From the IMG/VR virus record IMGVR_UViG_3300042563_001995, positions 1-49,466 of that record: a stretch of 49,466 bases of DNA. One strand, given 5' to 3'. The translations under genes and the position numbers were made by a program. The stretch comes from a virus. This document shows, in pieces, positions 306-7,745 of the stretch. The notes under the pieces are model-generated. The model ran no database searches, had not been told where the DNA came from, and saw only the letters and a program-made list of their open reading frames with translations. Each line of letters begins with the position of its first letter. Position 1 is the stretch's first letter.

Positions 306-1106
306 TTACATATATTCATACAATATGGAACTATCATTCCTTAATTTTCGTAAGGCTTTCTCTTTGATTTGTCTAACACGTTCCTTTGTTAGATTAAAAT
401 CACCACCAATATCTTCAAGAGTTCTTGGTGTTCCGGTTAGACCATAATAGTCCTCAACAATAACTTTTTCTCTATCATCCAAGACATTCAATAATGAAAT
501 CAATTGTCTCTTAAGTTCATCTTTACTATTAAAGATTTCATCCGGCATCTCTGCTTGGTCGTTTTTAATAATATCCACAAGAGTGTCTCCATCTTCATTG
601 ATACTCATATCCAAGTCAATCATTGAAGGTAGGTTTTGAAACTTATCCTCTAACTTACCACCATTAGATTCAATTGCTTTCTTAGCTCTATGTAAATCTT
701 GAACTACATTAACTGGTAGTCGTATAGTACGAGCATTATCATTTAATGATTGGAGAATTGATTGTTTAACCCACCACACAGCGTAAGATATGAATCGAAG
801 ATTCTTTGACCAATCAAAATTTTGGATTGCTTTCATTAATCCTAAATTACCTTCAGAGATTAAATCAGGGAAATCTAACCCTTGATTTTGATATTGTTTA
901 GCAACAGTAATAACAAACCGTAAATTACCCTCTAATAATTCTTGGTTCACTTCGTTAACCTCTCTTGGTGTTAAAGTTCCGGAACTAATCATTTTAGATA
1001 GTTCTCGTTCTCTTTCAGGAGTCATTACTTTAATCTTACGAATATCCTTTAAATACAAGTTAATCTCTTCTTGATTAATTGGAATACCTGAGCTTTTTTC
1101 TTTCAT
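306..1106 (-). CDS. RpoD-like sigma-70 family RNA polymerase sigma factor
   Basis: This is a 266-residue sigma factor that should direct host RNA polymerase to particular promoters. Region 1.2-like sequence occupies about residues 10-40. Region 2 lies at about 60-130 and carries NLRFVITVAKQYQNQG, DLISEGNLGLMKAIQNFDW and FISYAVWWVKQSI, the core-binding and -10 recognition helices. A region 3 follows, and region 4 (about 205-260) has the helix-turn-helix TLEDIGGDFNLTKERVRQIK. The wording is very close to the short primary sigma factor of Bacteroidota rather than to T4 gp55, which is much shorter and diverged. The long acidic first part of region 1 is missing, as in Bacteroidota RpoD. It is the last gene before a terminator and starts one base after the previous stop. 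It most likely switches transcription to a set of phage promoters; capture of a host sigma gene is an inference. Confidence 0.95.
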   Translation of the reverse strand: MKEKSSGIPINQEEINLYLKDIRKIKVMTPERERELSKMISSGTLTPREVNEVNQELLEGNLRFVITVAKQYQNQGLDFPDLISEGNLGLMKAIQNFDWSKNLRFISYAVWWVKQSILQSLNDNARTIRLPVNVVQDLHRAKKAIESNGGKLEDKFQNLPSMIDLDMSINEDGDTLVDIIKNDQAEMPDEIFNSKDELKRQLISLLNVLDDREKVIVEDYYGLTGTPRTLEDIGGDFNLTKERVRQIKEKALRKLRNDSSILYEYM

Positions 1107-1107
1107 A

Positions 1108-1683
1108 TTAATTTGAGTATTTGTTTAGTTGTGATAATTCTTTTTCCGTCAGCGAATTTAACCCTTTTTCTTTTATTTTTTCGAGTAATTCATCTAAAGA
1201 TGGACTACGTTGTTTATTTTTAATTTCATCAATGTCTGACCACTCATCTTCATCGTAGTCAAAATCAAAATTATCAATGTTTAAATTAAAAGTGTCTCGA
1301 ATTTTGTCTTGTATCATTTTTCGTACCTCAAATTCTTCTGTGTACGAATTGTTTGGTTTTTCTGACATAAAGTCATTGATACCATCATTAAAAAGATGTT
1401 TAGATATTTTTTCAGGTAAACCATATGACAAATTGTCAGATGTATATGGTAGTAAGACATACATAATGTCTCCTACATCTAAAATCATATCAACATAGTC
1501 TTTTACATCCTGATGAGAATCTAATGTTGAGATTGTGAACACAGATGACTCTGGTCCGAAATAAAAATTAAGATTGGGTGTGTCTGAAATAACACATAAT
1601 TCTTCTGCGATTTGTTCTGTAAATTCTTTTGGGTTGTCGTTTTTTGCAAAGACAAATAAAATGTATTTGGTTAATCCAATCAT
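1108..1683 (-). CDS. Hypothetical protein with DUF6576-like C-terminal motif
   Basis: This 191-residue acidic protein has no recognised enzymatic motif. The N-terminal 90 residues look like a small alpha/beta domain, starting with a beta strand (KYILFVFAK). A low-complexity acidic stretch follows (DNFDFDYDEDEWSDIDE). The last 32 residues, SPSLDELLEKIKEKGLNSLT plus EKELSQL, match the short helical tail seen at the C-terminus of many Bacteroidota proteins, such as rhomboid-family proteins annotated with DUF6576; this comparison is from memory. The gene directly precedes the sigma factor with a one-base gap and has a good Bacteroidota-type promoter upstream, so the pair is probably co-transcribed and co-regulated. 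A role as an anti-sigma or accessory factor is possible but nothing in the sequence shows it. Confidence 0.85.
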   Translation of the reverse strand: MIGLTKYILFVFAKNDNPKEFTEQIAEELCVISDTPNLNFYFGPESSVFTISTLDSHQDVKDYVDMILDVGDIMYVLLPYTSDNLSYGLPEKISKHLFNDGINDFMSEKPNNSYTEEFEVRKMIQDKIRDTFNLNIDNFDFDYDEDEWSDIDEIKNKQRSPSLDELLEKIKEKGLNSLTEKELSQLNKYSN

Positions 1684-1714
1684 ATGTTATACGTTTAAGT
1701 TATAAATTATGTTA

Positions 1715-1746
1715 CAAATGTAGTGAAATTATTTAGATATACTCAA
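1715..1746 (-). promoter_or_regulatory. Bacteroidota-type promoter for the hypothetical/sigma pair
   Basis: On the minus strand TTG (1746-1744), a 21-base spacer and TACATTTG (1722-1715) fit the Bacteroidota consensus TTG-N17-23-TAnnTTTG. The predicted transcript would start about 25 bases before the ATG at 1683. A GTTATG-AGC-CATAAC inverted repeat at 1777-1791 lies about 30 bases upstream and could be an operator; that part is inference. Confidence 0.6.
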
Positions 1747-1801
1747 TAATTATATAAAATTTTTTTCTTCCATAGGGTTATGAGCCATAACAAATAAATT
1801 A

Positions 1802-2491
1802 TTATAAATAAGTATCTGAATTAAACACTCTAACTTTTTCTGAGGTATGTTTTGAAAACGATAATAAATCTTCTTTAGTATATGAATCACCATCAATTAA
1901 AACAAAAAATGATACGTTTTCATTAGGATTTGATTCACAAAATTTTAAAGATGACTTTAAAAATTGAACTATTTCGGATTTAGCACTATTTTGCCCCCCT
2001 CCTTGGTTAAAGGTTGTTTTTCCTAGCCCATAATCAATATGCCCATTTTCTTTTTCAACTTTATAATCAAAACTTCGAGAAGTTTCCCCTTCTATTTTTT
2101 CATACGTAAGTTTTGTCGAATTTTTACTGAATCTAGGTGCAATAGAATTACCCATTTTTTCAATTTCAACTCCCTTAGACTTTAAATGCTCTAATTGAAC
2201 TTTTTCACTGATATTTTGTCGGGTTATTTCAATGGCAAATTGAACGATTGCATATGTATCTTTAACAGTTGTAATATCTAATAAAACATCGTTTACTACT
2301 TTATCAAGGTAGTTTTTTTTAATGTAGTTTTCAATTTTTTTCAACAAGTTTTTTTGTGGTTTAGTTTTACCAATACCTCCGTTGTCCAATATTTGTTGAG
2401 ACCACTTTACAACATTTTTTTGGTTTTCTTTAACTTTTAATTTGTGGGTATTCCAATATCTATCGGAATGTGTCAATATTTCTGTCTTCAT
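1802..2491 (-). CDS. Probable type II restriction endonuclease (PD-(D/E)XK fold)
   Basis: This 229-residue protein follows a DNA methyltransferase gene by 32 bases on the same strand, the usual layout of a type II restriction-modification pair. In the C-terminal third the order FDY (141-143), a D at 153, FNQGGGQNSAKSE (161-173) and VSFFVLIDGDSY (193-204) recalls DpnII/MboI-like and other type II enzymes. Those have FD...IE-x-NFY-GGGSK-xE followed by an FIWITDG strand and a final helix. The canonical ExK triplet is not obvious: D153 is followed by YG, so the catalytic set may be diverged or the enzyme inactive. The N-terminal 130 residues are Lys-rich and helical, probably the DNA-binding part. 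The assignment rests on pattern and context, not on a search. The alternative is an unrelated phage nuclease. Confidence 0.55.
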   Translation of the reverse strand: MKTEILTHSDRYWNTHKLKVKENQKNVVKWSQQILDNGGIGKTKPQKNLLKKIENYIKKNYLDKVVNDVLLDITTVKDTYAIVQFAIEITRQNISEKVQLEHLKSKGVEIEKMGNSIAPRFSKNSTKLTYEKIEGETSRSFDYKVEKENGHIDYGLGKTTFNQGGGQNSAKSEIVQFLKSSLKFCESNPNENVSFFVLIDGDSYTKEDLLSFSKHTSEKVRVFNSDTYL

Positions 2492-2523
2492 CTCATTTTT
2501 TTTTAAAAAGTAAACAAATAAAA

Positions 2524-3402
2524 TTAAAGAGTCAAATTTTTTTTATTTAAACTCTCTTTTGTAATATATTCATTCAATATAGTTTCATTTTTTATAACAC
2601 CAACTAATCTTCTATCACAAATATCACAATAAGTTTCATCCAATTCAGAACCAATCCAATTTCTACCCAACTGTATTGATAACTTAGCCGTTGTTCCTGA
2701 ACCCATAAAAGGGTCGTAAACTAAATCATCTTCTTTAGTCCACGTAATAATATGTTTTGCGGCCAATTCTTCCGGAAAAATTGCAGGATGTTCAAACGCA
2801 ACAATATCTTTGGTAGACTTATTCATTCCATTTTTAATTAACCATATATTATTTTCAATACCATATTCATTAACCGGTTTACCATTAAACCCTGGTATCA
2901 TTTCACCGTCAGCGTTTCTGAATTTTCTTGAGTTCCTTACCGCTCCCGCTGTTACATTTTTCTTCATAATTGGGTTAAAAGTGTTTGGTTTACCCTTTGA
3001 GAATACAAACATATATTCAAATGTCTGATTATATCTAGTTTTTTGAGGAAAAGGTGTTCCAGTTTTTTGGTATATCATTGTGTCGTACAAATCAAACCCA
3101 CATTCTTTAAAGAAAAGTGCTTGTCTAAATGATGTTCCTGTTTCACTACCTTTATTTGTAGCGTCACCAACAACCCAAACAACTACACCACCTTTTTTAG
3201 TTATTCTAAATAATTCTTTTGCAATATCTTCAAATGGGAATGAATATCCGTTAAATTTTGTTTTATTCCCACTTAAATGAGCGTTATAAGTCCTTAAATC
3301 ATCATAAGGTGGCGATGTTAAAGTTAAATCTATTAAACCATCACTTATTTTAGACATTGTTATTAAACAGTCTTCATTATACATTCTATTATTCTCTACC
3401 AT
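2524..3402 (-). CDS. Site-specific DNA methyltransferase (N4-cytosine/N6-adenine, beta class)
   Basis: This 292-residue S-adenosylmethionine-dependent amino-methyltransferase has catalytic motif IV TSPPYDDL at residues 29-36. The S-adenosylmethionine motif I, DPFMGSGTTA, comes near the C-terminus at about 229-238. This order, with the target-recognition region between, defines the beta class. SPPY is compatible with either N4-cytosine or N6-adenine methylation. Motif X-like NRMYNEDCLITM precedes motif IV. It modifies DNA, either to shield the phage genome from host restriction or as the partner of the endonuclease-like gene that follows. The order, methyltransferase first, would protect DNA before the nuclease is made. 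A TTAGACAT motif touches the start codon at 3403-3410. A start at Met7 (3384) is also possible. The recognition site cannot be read from the sequence. Confidence 0.93.
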   Translation of the reverse strand: MVENNRMYNEDCLITMSKISDGLIDLTLTSPPYDDLRTYNAHLSGNKTKFNGYSFPFEDIAKELFRITKKGGVVVWVVGDATNKGSETGTSFRQALFFKECGFDLYDTMIYQKTGTPFPQKTRYNQTFEYMFVFSKGKPNTFNPIMKKNVTAGAVRNSRKFRNADGEMIPGFNGKPVNEYGIENNIWLIKNGMNKSTKDIVAFEHPAIFPEELAAKHIITWTKEDDLVYDPFMGSGTTAKLSIQLGRNWIGSELDETYCDICDRRLVGVIKNETILNEYITKESLNKKNLTL

Positions 3403-3440
3403 ATGTCTAACTATAATTAATTAATCTTAAAGTTTCCACA

Positions 3441-5810
3441 TTATTGGGAAACATAACTTATATTTTCTTCTTTTCTAATTCTTACCACGTTATCCGCCCA
3501 ATTTGTTACTAATGGGTTGTGTGTAATAACAAATATCTTCTCAAAGTATTCTTTAATCTTACTAAAGAATTCCGATACCATCTCCAAGTTGTCGTTGGAT
3601 ATCTTTCCGAACACCTCGTCGAATACAACAACGTTAGCTCTTGGTAATGAACATATCTTACTCAACACAGCTCTTAACGCTAGTGATGCAATAGTTCTTT
3701 CATACCCGGAACCGGAAGACATTGGTTTCTCAACTTGAGTGTTGTTATCAATCATAAGGAAGTCTACTTCATTTTTATCATTAATCTTAACCTCTAATCT
3801 GAAGTGACAACTATCCTCTAACAATCGTTGAAGTTCACTGTTGATAAGTGGCATCATCGTCTTCATTATAAGTTTAGTCACACCATTCTTACCAAATATT
3901 TCCAAATAGATTTTATAGATTCTTTCTCTCTCCGCCTCTTCAGCAATCTTTCTAATTGTTTCCAAGTTAGAAGTTATCTTAGTTGTTAGATTAGTTATCG
4001 TAAACTTATTGTTTGAGATACTAGTTTCAATAGTTTTCTTCTCACCCTCAAGTTCATCAATTCTGATTCCTGCTTTAATTAACAATCCATCTGTTTTGTT
4101 GTTTTCAATAATCTTATCCTGAACCTCAGAGTATCTTTCCAATTTGGTTTTCAACGCATCAATCATCAATTGGAAACGTTCGACACTTAATTCGTATTTT
4201 TCTTTGATAAGTTTGTTTTTCTCATACTCATCAAACTCTTTTTTAAGATTAACAAAACTTAACTCTTTGCTGGTTAAATCCTGCATTAACCCTTCTAATT
4301 CCCCTTTGTGCGTGATAAATCCGGCAAGTTCCCCAATTTTTGCATTGGTAATTGCCGCGTTCATCAGTTCAATACCACAGTGTTCACATTTGATTCCACC
4401 ATCAACAGAACTTTTAAGTTCTTCAATACTTTTAATCTTTGCGTTGTTCTCCGCTTGTTTGGTAATCAAATCCTTAATCTCTTGTTTTACCTCATCGTGT
4501 TTGTCCTCGTGGTAAAATTCAGATGGTTCAACAACCTTAACCCCATCTCTATCAGAAATAGATTTAGATTTTTGGGTCGACAACCCAATAATTTCTTCCT
4601 GAATCTTGTCCGGTGATACCGTCATCAATTCATTATCAATGTTGTGTTTGGATTTTAACAACCCATCACGATACTCCTGACCCTTAACAATTCTTGCTTT
4701 CGCATCTTCCAATTGAGTATCCAATGTGATATTACTCTCCGTTAGAGTATCAATTGTATCTTGACTAGTTTGGTTATCCGTTTTAAGTTCTTCAGAGTTA
4801 TAAATGTTTGACAACATTCCTTTGGAGAAGTCACTATAAATTTCTTTAGCAGCTTCTTCCTTTCGTTTAAGAAAATCCAACCCCATAAACCTTGAAAGAA
4901 CTTGACCCCTCGCCGTAGGTTTGGCATCAATTAGTTCTTCCAAGTTGGTGGCAGTGGTTAGGATGGTCATTAAGAAGTCCTCTTTGGTTCCGATAGATGT
5001 TTTGATAAACGCCTCGGTCTCTCTTCGTTGTTCTCCGGTGAAGTTCTGCAAACTACCATCAGACAATCTTTTGTAGAAGTCCAACTCGGTCTTAACCGTC
5101 CATTCATTTTTCTTTGATAACTTTCTCTCAATATTTCTCAATATGATATACTCCTCACCATCGATTGTAATCTCACCTTTTACGGCAACTTTGTTTCTCT
5201 CGGTAAACCTGTTAAATATTTCCTCCGCTTTGGATGTCTTGGTTGTCTCATTAAAGAATAAAAACATAAGTAAATCCACAGTCAAAACTGTTTTACCCCC
5301 AAAGTTAGGTGGGTTTGATTCAACAACCGTAATCCCATCACACTTCTCAAAATCTATCTTCTGATTCTCACCATAGGATAAAAAGTTTGAGAACTCAATA
5401 TTCCTAATATACCATCTCTTAAACGGAGTGGCGTCGGTTTGGTCCTGTAACAATTTATTATCCACAATACTGTTAAGTTGGTAGATATCGTCGTAGTGTT
5501 CCATATTCCCTTTTGACTCCAAGAATGAACGAACTAATTCTAATTGATAGTTCTCATCCAAGATGTTAAAGGATATGTCTACGGTATGTGTGGTGTCCTC
5601 AGCAACCTTTGTCTTTGTAATAACATTAACATTGGTTGTGTTGTACTTCTTTTGAAAGTAATGACGAACACTCTTTATTTTTTCTTGAGTAAAGTTTTCA
5701 GCATAATCCTCCCATACAATCTGTAAGTAAGGATTATCAAAACTTGTGATATCTAAATCTTTTATCATTATTGTGTAATTAAATTGAGGTGGGGGATTGA
5801 ATAAATCCAT
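3441..5810 (-). CDS. gp46: Rad50/SbcC-type recombination ATPase, T4 gp46-like
   Basis: This is the ATPase half of the Mre11-Rad50 (gp47-gp46) complex that processes double-strand ends for recombination and replication. Counting from an upstream TTG at 5828, the P-loop SNPPNFGGKT lies at about 171-180, the zinc hook CEHC at about 479-482 within long coiled coils, the signature SSGSGYERTIASL at about 706, Walker B VVVFDEVFGK at about 736, and the H-loop FVITHN after it. The ATG at 5810 (MDLFNPPPQ) is chosen over the TTG. Two oddities stand out. About 135 residues precede the usual start of the ATPase head. The first Gly of the Walker A consensus is Pro. The partner nuclease gp47 is at 7735-8520 in the same block. 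ATP-driven end processing is known for the family; the role of the extension is not known. Confidence 0.93.
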   Translation of the reverse strand: MDLFNPPPQFNYTIMIKDLDITSFDNPYLQIVWEDYAENFTQEKIKSVRHYFQKKYNTTNVNVITKTKVAEDTTHTVDISFNILDENYQLELVRSFLESKGNMEHYDDIYQLNSIVDNKLLQDQTDATPFKRWYIRNIEFSNFLSYGENQKIDFEKCDGITVVESNPPNFGGKTVLTVDLLMFLFFNETTKTSKAEEIFNRFTERNKVAVKGEITIDGEEYIILRNIERKLSKKNEWTVKTELDFYKRLSDGSLQNFTGEQRRETEAFIKTSIGTKEDFLMTILTTATNLEELIDAKPTARGQVLSRFMGLDFLKRKEEAAKEIYSDFSKGMLSNIYNSEELKTDNQTSQDTIDTLTESNITLDTQLEDAKARIVKGQEYRDGLLKSKHNIDNELMTVSPDKIQEEIIGLSTQKSKSISDRDGVKVVEPSEFYHEDKHDEVKQEIKDLITKQAENNAKIKSIEELKSSVDGGIKCEHCGIELMNAAITNAKIGELAGFITHKGELEGLMQDLTSKELSFVNLKKEFDEYEKNKLIKEKYELSVERFQLMIDALKTKLERYSEVQDKIIENNKTDGLLIKAGIRIDELEGEKKTIETSISNNKFTITNLTTKITSNLETIRKIAEEAERERIYKIYLEIFGKNGVTKLIMKTMMPLINSELQRLLEDSCHFRLEVKINDKNEVDFLMIDNNTQVEKPMSSGSGYERTIASLALRAVLSKICSLPRANVVVFDEVFGKISNDNLEMVSEFFSKIKEYFEKIFVITHNPLVTNWADNVVRIRKEENISYVSQ

Positions 5811-7022: not shown

Positions 7023-7745
7023 CTACATTGTTTCACTTATGTTGGAACCTTTTAAATAAACAGCTCCCTGTTCAACTCTTATCGATTCCAATTGTTTATT
7101 TATTTTTTCAAGGTCTTCAATCCTTGTGTTTTTTAAAGATAGTTCTTTTCTAAGTTTCTGTAAAGTTTCTTGGAGAAGTAATGTCTTATCATTTGATTTT
7201 TCTACCTCAACAACTTTTTCCACTTCAACTATCTTCTCAATTATCTTTTCTACCTCAACGATTCTTTCCACAATAGTTTCAACCGGAACTTCTTTGACGA
7301 CTTCCACAATTTTTTCAACAATTATTGGTTCAGGTTTGTCACAAATATTGTCTAAATTTGTTACAGGAACTTCTACTCTTACTTCTTTGATAACTTCTCT
7401 GTCAAGATATTTGATAACCTCAACTTCTTTGATGATCTCAACCGGAATCTCCTTAATAACTTCTTTAATAACCTCAACTTCTCGGATTATTTCTTTGATG
7501 ACCTCAACCTCTTTGATAACTTCAACCGGAACTTCAACCCGTATTTCACGGATTACCTCAATTTCTACCTGTTTTTCACCAAAAATACCTGTTTTTACTG
7601 AATCATCACCAAGAAGTCCATATTTCTTTATGTTAAACCCTTCGGTATAACATTTGGAAATAAACTTATCCACATCCTTAATATTGTTTAATTTACAATA
7701 TTCATTGACACTACTTAATTGACTACTTGTTAATTTAATTTCCAC
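7023..7745 (-). CDS. Repetitive VEVIKEV protein with C-terminal coiled coil
   Basis: This 240-residue protein is dominated by a repeat region (about 55-185) built from variations of VEVIKEV, VEVPVEV and VVEVEK. In these, hydrophobic Val/Ile alternate with Glu/Lys. Residues 1-50 are a small non-repetitive head with NEYCKLNNIKDVDKFISKCY, similar in feel to short phage regulatory or adaptor heads. The end (TLLLQETLQKLRKELSLK and the residues after it) is a typical coiled coil. Alternating V/E patterns can form an extended beta structure or a stiff stalk. The gene overlaps the gp47-like gene by 11 bases, which suggests translational coupling. No enzyme motif is seen. It could tether or oligomerise a partner, but this is not shown. 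Confidence 0.85.
   Translation of the reverse strand: MEIKLTSSQLSSVNEYCKLNNIKDVDKFISKCYTEGFNIKKYGLLGDDSVKTGIFGEKQVEIEVIREIRVEVPVEVIKEVEVIKEIIREVEVIKEVIKEIPVEIIKEVEVIKYLDREVIKEVRVEVPVTNLDNICDKPEPIIVEKIVEVVKEVPVETIVERIVEVEKIIEKIVEVEKVVEVEKSNDKTLLLQETLQKLRKELSLKNTRIEDLEKINKQLESIRVEQGAVYLKGSNISETM

What the first reader, a model, noticed from the sequence alone, without database searches (positions are those of the whole stretch)
1802..3402. Possible complete type II restriction-modification pair inside a T4-like replication block
A beta-class methyltransferase is followed by a nuclease-like gene with a FD...GGGQNSAKSE...FFVLIDGDSY pattern recalling DpnII/MboI-like endonucleases. A phage with its own restriction gene could exclude competitors or degrade host DNA while protecting its own. 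The endonuclease call is not certain, because the ExK triplet is unclear.
Basis: partly seen in the sequence, partly recalled or inferred. Interest (0 to 1): 0.65.

Follow-up and report, generated by a model that had tools for sequence, protein, structure and literature searches.

The report
Phage-borne restriction-modification gene pair
This virus of bacteria carries what looks like its own DNA-cutting and DNA-protecting gene pair, placed in a spot of its genome where close relatives carry nothing or a different pair, which suggests that these viruses swap such weapons.

Summary
The two genes exist as described. 2524-3402(-) is a beta-class DNA methyltransferase. 1802-2491(-) matches no family model, but has relatives in several phages beside methyltransferases. 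Its predicted core (a-b-b-b-a-b) is that of PD-(D/E)XK nucleases; the best solved match is the restriction enzyme BstEII (E 6.4e-5, one model only). Remote cyanophage relatives are catalogued as 'restriction endonuclease II'. It is not DpnII/MboI-like, and the ExK is not canonical: the conserved set is D142, K158 and probably E173 from the next helix. The gene is under purifying selection. The pair fills the gap between an SbcC-like gene and a small gene before the sigma factor. In 45 of 68 readable relatives this gap is empty; in others it holds different cassettes, many with a methyltransferase plus a different nuclease. All 12 slot copies of this methyltransferase family have a partner gene. 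Most likely this is a real phage-borne Type II restriction-modification cassette in an exchange hotspot, used against unmodified host or rival-phage DNA. Cleavage, a shared recognition site and the biological target are not shown. The kind of system is known; the nuclease branch and the swap slot are the new parts.

The parts
2524..3402 (-). beta-class DNA methyltransferase (M), 292 aa; motif IV TSPPY before motif I DPFMGSGTT
   Evidence: Pfam PF01555 2.7e-43; PADLOC PDLC03714 1.5e-93; PDB beta-class MTases
1802..2491 (-). candidate Type II restriction endonuclease (R), 229 aa; conserved Q92, E/D96, R120, S/T140, D142, K158, G164-G165, E173, D200
   Evidence: AF2 model with abbb-a-b core; Foldseek BstEII E 6.4e-5, viral matches incl. 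S-RSM4 protein; profile match to S-RSM4 'restriction endonuclease II' 1.1e-9; alignment
1684..3440 (.). cassette slot between the stop of the SbcC-like gene and the start of the 191-aa gene; about 30-100 bp in most relatives, 1757 bp here
   Evidence: slot census and empty sites
3441..5807 (-). left border gene: SbcC/gp46-like subunit
   Evidence: phrog_77 1.1e-38
1108..1683 (-). right border gene: 191-aa protein, DUF6576 at its end
   Evidence: Pfam PF20216 1.3e-8; promoter/leader before it kept in empty and filled slots
306..1106 (-). sigma-70-like factor, next gene beyond the slot
   Evidence: Pfam Sigma70_r2/r4; phrog_351 1.5e-55

Best explanation
The two genes are a phage-borne Type II restriction-modification cassette. 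M methylates a short site in phage DNA; R, a PD-(D/E)XK-fold endonuclease of a divergent, perhaps BstEII/Tsp45I-like, family with active-site residues D142, K158 and probably E173 (glutamate on the helix after the lysine strand), cuts the same site where it is not methylated. The cassette lies in an exchange slot of this phage clade and is traded as a unit or in parts. During infection it would destroy unmodified DNA, either that of a competing phage or the host chromosome. Shown from sequence: the MTase, the conserved family of R, its linkage to MTases, purifying selection, and the slot with other REase/MTase cassettes. Predicted: the nuclease fold and active site. Inferred: cleavage, shared specificity, and which DNA is the target.
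For: MTase certain. Model of R has the PD-(D/E)XK core order; best PDB match BstEII with DNA, E 6.4e-5, with EcoO109I, PspGI, Ecl18kI further down. Six-member profile finds S-RSM4 CAR63393 at E 1.1e-9, which is PHROG 18366 'restriction endonuclease II'; the same protein is an independent structural match. A member in a 636-kb phage matches Pfam Tsp45I at E 6.4e-4. Linkage to MTases in all contexts examined: window, L001, L015, L016 (M just upstream); L070, L078 and cyanophages (Eco57I-like MTase downstream), P-SSM4 and P-SSM3 with two MTases. Slot: sister phages with SbcC 94-97% identical carry other pairs, with partners matching PADLOC REase_II (L020 4.4e-5; L132 1.1e-10 and L142 1.6e-10). 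Purifying selection on R.
Against: No direct family hit for the window R in Pfam, NCBIfam, PADLOC or PDB sequences. The canonical ExK is missing, and E173 is D or N in two of eleven members. The BstEII match came from one model (pLDDT 71.5); a model of the L016 member gave only weak REase matches, best E 0.065. M belongs to a family labelled orphan, and its relatives in other phages often stand without a recognisable nuclease. In L015 M is 87% identical while R is only 28%, which is odd if both must share one specificity.
Confidence: 0.74

Rival explanations
1. M is an orphan protective methyltransferase and R is a separate nuclease (host-DNA degrader) whose specificity is not matched to M; they share a slot by chance or because both are useful accessory genes.
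For: M's best PADLOC family is 'orphan methyltransferase'; many relatives of M in other phages have no nuclease beside them; L015 shows M 87% but R 28% identical.
Against: All 12 slot copies of this M family have a partner gene, and several partners match REase_II or the R family; R homologs repeatedly sit next to MTases of two classes.
Confidence: 0.14
2. R works mainly as a homing-type endonuclease: it cuts the empty slot of relatives and so spreads the cassette; the MTase protects the carrier.
For: Insertion at one fixed intergenic place, with empty sites in close relatives; R has lower dS (0.107) than M (0.467) and SbcC (0.69) between the two carriers, so it moved more recently.
Against: Unrelated cassettes with different nucleases use the same slot, and homologs of R lie in other genomic places; relatives are catalogued as Type II enzymes, not homing enzymes; the lack of essential sequence in an intergenic gap would also explain the hotspot.
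Confidence: 0.07
3. R has lost catalysis and is a DNA-binding or regulatory partner of M.
For: No ExK; E173 varies to D or N in two members.
Against: D142 and K158 are kept across deep divergence (D142 by eye in L078, whose aligned column is a gap); dN/dS 0.25; restriction enzymes with the acidic residue moved to the next helix are known (PspGI, Ecl18kI, general knowledge), and both are among the fold matches.
Confidence: 0.05

Closest known systems
PHROG 18366 'restriction endonuclease II' of marine T4-like cyanophages (S-RSM4, P-SSM4, P-SSM3, ACG-2014e, S-H38)
   Same: Profile-level homology to R (E 1.1e-9), same D/K/GG/E/D residues, same size, next to DNA methyltransferases
   Different: Very low pairwise identity; paired with an Eco57I-like MTase (plus a beta-class one in P-SSM4/3); the window has only the beta-class MTase at the slot, and no relative of the Eco57I-like MTase was found in L001's genome
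BstEII (PDB 9ibq, site GGTNACC) and Tsp45I (Pfam PF06300, GTSAC) restriction enzymes
   Same: Predicted fold of R matches BstEII best; one R homolog gives a sub-threshold Tsp45I match over the core region
   Different: Weak scores; the window protein itself does not match Tsp45I; the second model did not reproduce the BstEII match; recognition site unknown (GTNAC is not depleted in the window)
PADLOC oMTase PDLC03714 (orphan beta-class DNA methyltransferases)
   Same: M matches over nearly its whole length (E 1.5e-93)
   Different: Here, and in all 12 slot copies, M has a neighbouring partner gene
Chlorovirus restriction-modification systems (PMC7019647)
   Same: Virus-encoded MTase and restriction enzyme genes side by side; proposed to degrade host DNA
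   Different: Virus of a eukaryote; proteins not shown to be related here
DpnII/MboI restriction enzymes
   Same: General look of FD ... G-rich loop ... DG motif
   Different: No family match; no E-x-N/K at the expected place

Membership tests
Type II restriction-modification system | DNA methyltransferase gene next to the nuclease gene | tested here: met
   32 bp apart, same strand; linkage repeated in relatives
Type II restriction-modification system | Sequence-specific cleavage blocked by the partner's methylation | not testable with these tools
   needs enzymology
PD-(D/E)XK nuclease superfamily | alpha-beta-beta-beta-alpha-beta core | tested here: met
   predicted only: AF2 model, pLDDT 71.5, pTM 0.64; same order in a second member, pLDDT 76
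PD-(D/E)XK nuclease superfamily | canonical (D/E)-X-K on the third strand | tested here: not met
   the residues before K158 are L156 and G157; no acidic residue conserved at that place
PD-(D/E)XK nuclease, variant with migrated glutamate | D on strand 2, K on strand 3, E on the following helix | tested here: inconclusive
   D142 and K158 conserved; E173 in 9 of 11, D or N in the others; coordinates not available to measure distances
Tsp45I family (PF06300) | Pfam gathering score | tested here: not met
   no hit for window R; homolog P0006 19.8 bits versus cut-off 25
PHROG 18366 restriction endonuclease II | profile match | tested here: inconclusive
   window R not hit directly; R profile finds a member at E 1.1e-9; homolog P0005 E 0.0073
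DpnII/MboI family | family profile match | tested here: not met
   no such hit up to E 1 in Pfam or PADLOC
beta-class amino-methyltransferase | motif IV (SPPY) upstream of motif I (DPFxGSGTT) | tested here: met
   sequence; Pfam PF01555

The most novel reading that the evidence does not exclude
An uncultured clade of large T4-like phages keeps a dedicated exchange slot between its SbcC-like gene and the gene before its sigma factor, into which interchangeable restriction-modification cassettes are loaded and lost, so that closely related phages differ by which restriction specificity they carry, for use in phage-phage competition or host-DNA destruction.
Probability: 0.5. Interest if true: 0.75.

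Novelty: new member of a known kind. Interest (0 to 1): 0.57.

Why it matters
Phages are usually seen as targets of restriction and as carriers of protective methyltransferases only. A phage clade that swaps whole restriction pairs at one locus would make phage-phage competition by restriction directly testable, would offer a source of unknown restriction specificities, and gives a new remote branch of a poorly covered nuclease family.

Tried and rejected
DpnII/MboI membership: no profile support. Chance open reading frame: rejected by a 94% homolog, purifying selection and distant homologs. Bacterial or plasmid relatives of R: none found in PLSDB or in two GTDB pattern scans, but those scans only reach relatives carrying the chosen short patterns. 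PDB sequence search with profiles: only chance hits. Self-site avoidance by R: GATC and CATG are nearly absent from the window, but relatives with an empty slot lack GATC just as much, so R is not the cause; GTNAC is not depleted. A second Eco57I-like MTase elsewhere in L001's 208-kb genome: not found. Second structure model: fold order reproduced, BstEII match not. The Pfam Tsp45I family could not be used for a profile-profile test because no family sequences were within reach. L152 and L153 were counted as occupied by script, but hold only a divergent copy of the 191-aa gene, so they are probably empty.

Full report
What is there. On the minus strand, M (3402-2524, 292 aa) is followed after 32 bp by R (2491-1802, 229 aa). 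M is a beta-class DNA methyltransferase (PF01555, 2.7e-43; PADLOC oMTase, 1.5e-93). R has no direct family match in Pfam, PADLOC, NCBIfam or PDB sequences, and only a marginal PHROG hit (E 0.02).

Relatives of R. A 94% copy sits in the same place in a 208-kb phage. More distant relatives follow homologous methyltransferases in L016 (33% identity, E 7e-30) and L015 (28%). A further one (L070 and copies) lies between a broken beta-class MTase and an Eco57I-like MTase. A 636-kb phage, LR756504, has one beside an Eco57I-like MTase. A profile of these six finds a protein of Synechococcus phage S-RSM4 at E 1.1e-9. That protein and its relatives in P-SSM4, P-SSM3, ACG-2014e and S-H38 are labelled 'restriction endonuclease II' in RefSeq and PHROG 18366 and lie one or two genes from DNA methyltransferases. 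Across eleven members Q92, R120, K158, G164, G165 and D200 do not vary in the alignment, and position 96 is always acidic. D142 is present in all, allowing for one misaligned row (L078) where it is visible by eye. E173 is E in nine, D or N in two.

Fold. An AlphaFold2 model from five sequences (pLDDT 71.5, pTM 0.64) has the element order helix 91-105, strands 110-112, 143-146, 152-159, helix 167-187, strand 193-200, helix 206-215, strand 220-224. This is the PD-(D/E)XK order. Foldseek against the PDB gives BstEII bound to DNA first (E 6.4e-5, probability 1.00, TM 0.44 on the query), then other PD-(D/E)XK proteins including EcoO109I, PspGI and Ecl18kI. Against viral models the S-RSM4 protein comes second (E 4.1e-6); the first, M1HMH0 (E 5.2e-9), has no name in the tables. 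A model of the L016 member has the same order (pLDDT 76), but its PDB matches are weak: best E 0.065, with PspGI and EcoO109I in the list and BstEII not among the 50 shown. A Pfam Tsp45I match of the LR756504 member (E 6.4e-4, below the cut-off) points the same way, since Tsp45I and BstEII recognise related sites (general knowledge). The likeliest acidic partner is E173 on the next helix, as in the PspGI/Ecl18kI type (general knowledge; inference here).

Selection. Between the window and L001, R has 14.5 non-synonymous and 13.5 synonymous changes (dN/dS 0.25; chance of so many synonymous changes under neutrality about 0.001). R's dS (0.107) is below that of M (0.467) and of the SbcC-like gene (0.69), which fits recent exchange of this segment.

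The slot. I fetched 80 loci around relatives of the SbcC-like gene and read the gap between that gene and the 191-aa gene or sigma factor. Of 68 readable gaps 45 are empty (under 200 bp; 65 bp in most of the closest ones); 20 of these 45 have an SbcC at least 90% identical. The promoter-like leader before the 191-aa gene (TATCTTTGTAACATAAT...AAACGTATAACGT) is kept in filled and empty sites. Filled gaps hold at least ten different contents: this M+R; M with a divergent R (L015); a 231-aa partner plus M (L092, L115; PADLOC REase_II 4.4e-5); 226 aa plus M (L121); 158/150-aa partners plus M (L132, L142; REase_II about 1e-10); 178 aa plus M (L159, L163); three genes including M (L170); 171 aa plus another MTase (L128); 196 aa plus an Eco57I-like MTase (L114, L131); 818 aa with an Eco57I MTase domain (L110, L111); 813 aa of unknown kind (L099, L155); single small genes (L129, L168). 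In all 12 slot copies of this M family (window, L133, L092, L115, L117, L121, L132, L142, L159/L163, L165, L170, L015; L159 and L163 counted once) there is a partner gene. Elsewhere, relatives of M often lack a recognisable nuclease neighbour. Some phages in the set are near-duplicates, so counts are not independent events.

How it most likely works. M marks phage DNA; R cuts the same site when unmarked. Target options are the host chromosome, as proposed for chloroviruses (PMC7019647, read; there restriction enzymes were found not to cause mutual exclusion of viruses), or competing phages. The data do not decide. Cassette turnover between near-identical backbones suits a role in competition, but this is inference.

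What tempers it. No enzyme activity is known; shared specificity is untested; M's family is commonly orphan; in L015 M is 87% identical but R only 28%; the structural match to BstEII rests on one medium-confidence model. These lower the claim 'complete pair' more than the claim 'R is a restriction-type nuclease'.

Novelty. Phage- or virus-borne restriction pairs are known or annotated in cyanophages and chloroviruses. R is a divergent member of such a phage family, not named by current Pfam or PADLOC models. The exchange slot is, as far as I could find in the library searched, not described for this clade; the search was limited to open-licence papers.

Noticed in passing
window 1-49466; GATC at 7434, 10415, 32264; CATG at 20: Near-total avoidance of GATC (3, O/E 0.02) and CATG (1, O/E 0.01). 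GATC is zero (about 30-50 expected) in nearly all related loci tested, whether the slot is empty or filled; L015 and L159 are exceptions. Probably escape from host GATC/CATG restriction.
   Followed up: partly
window 3430-3460 and empty sites in L091, L093, L094 and others: The stop codon of the SbcC-like gene lies inside an inverted repeat (TATGTTTCCC...GGGAAACATA) that looks like a terminator; filled slots replace its right half and several bring their own hairpins.
   Followed up: partly
L070:1600-2522 (and L071, L072): The beta-class MTase upstream of the R homolog appears broken by a frameshift; the intact Eco57I-like MTase lies downstream.
   Followed up: no
L098, L110, L111, L114, L129, L131: A conserved 175-aa gene (MKQLTYNRKG...) sits between cassette and right border in several filled slots, alone in L098.
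   Followed up: no
L099:8416-10857, L155: 813-aa slot gene with no family match, found alone; perhaps a single-chain restriction-modification enzyme like the 818-aa gene of L110.
   Followed up: no
window 7023-7745 (-): Protein with many VEVIKEV-type repeats, probably a long coiled coil, beside the SbcCD-like genes.
   Followed up: no
L079:2102-3786: Two tandem beta-class MTases in the 636-kb phage LR756504, far from its R homolog.
   Followed up: no
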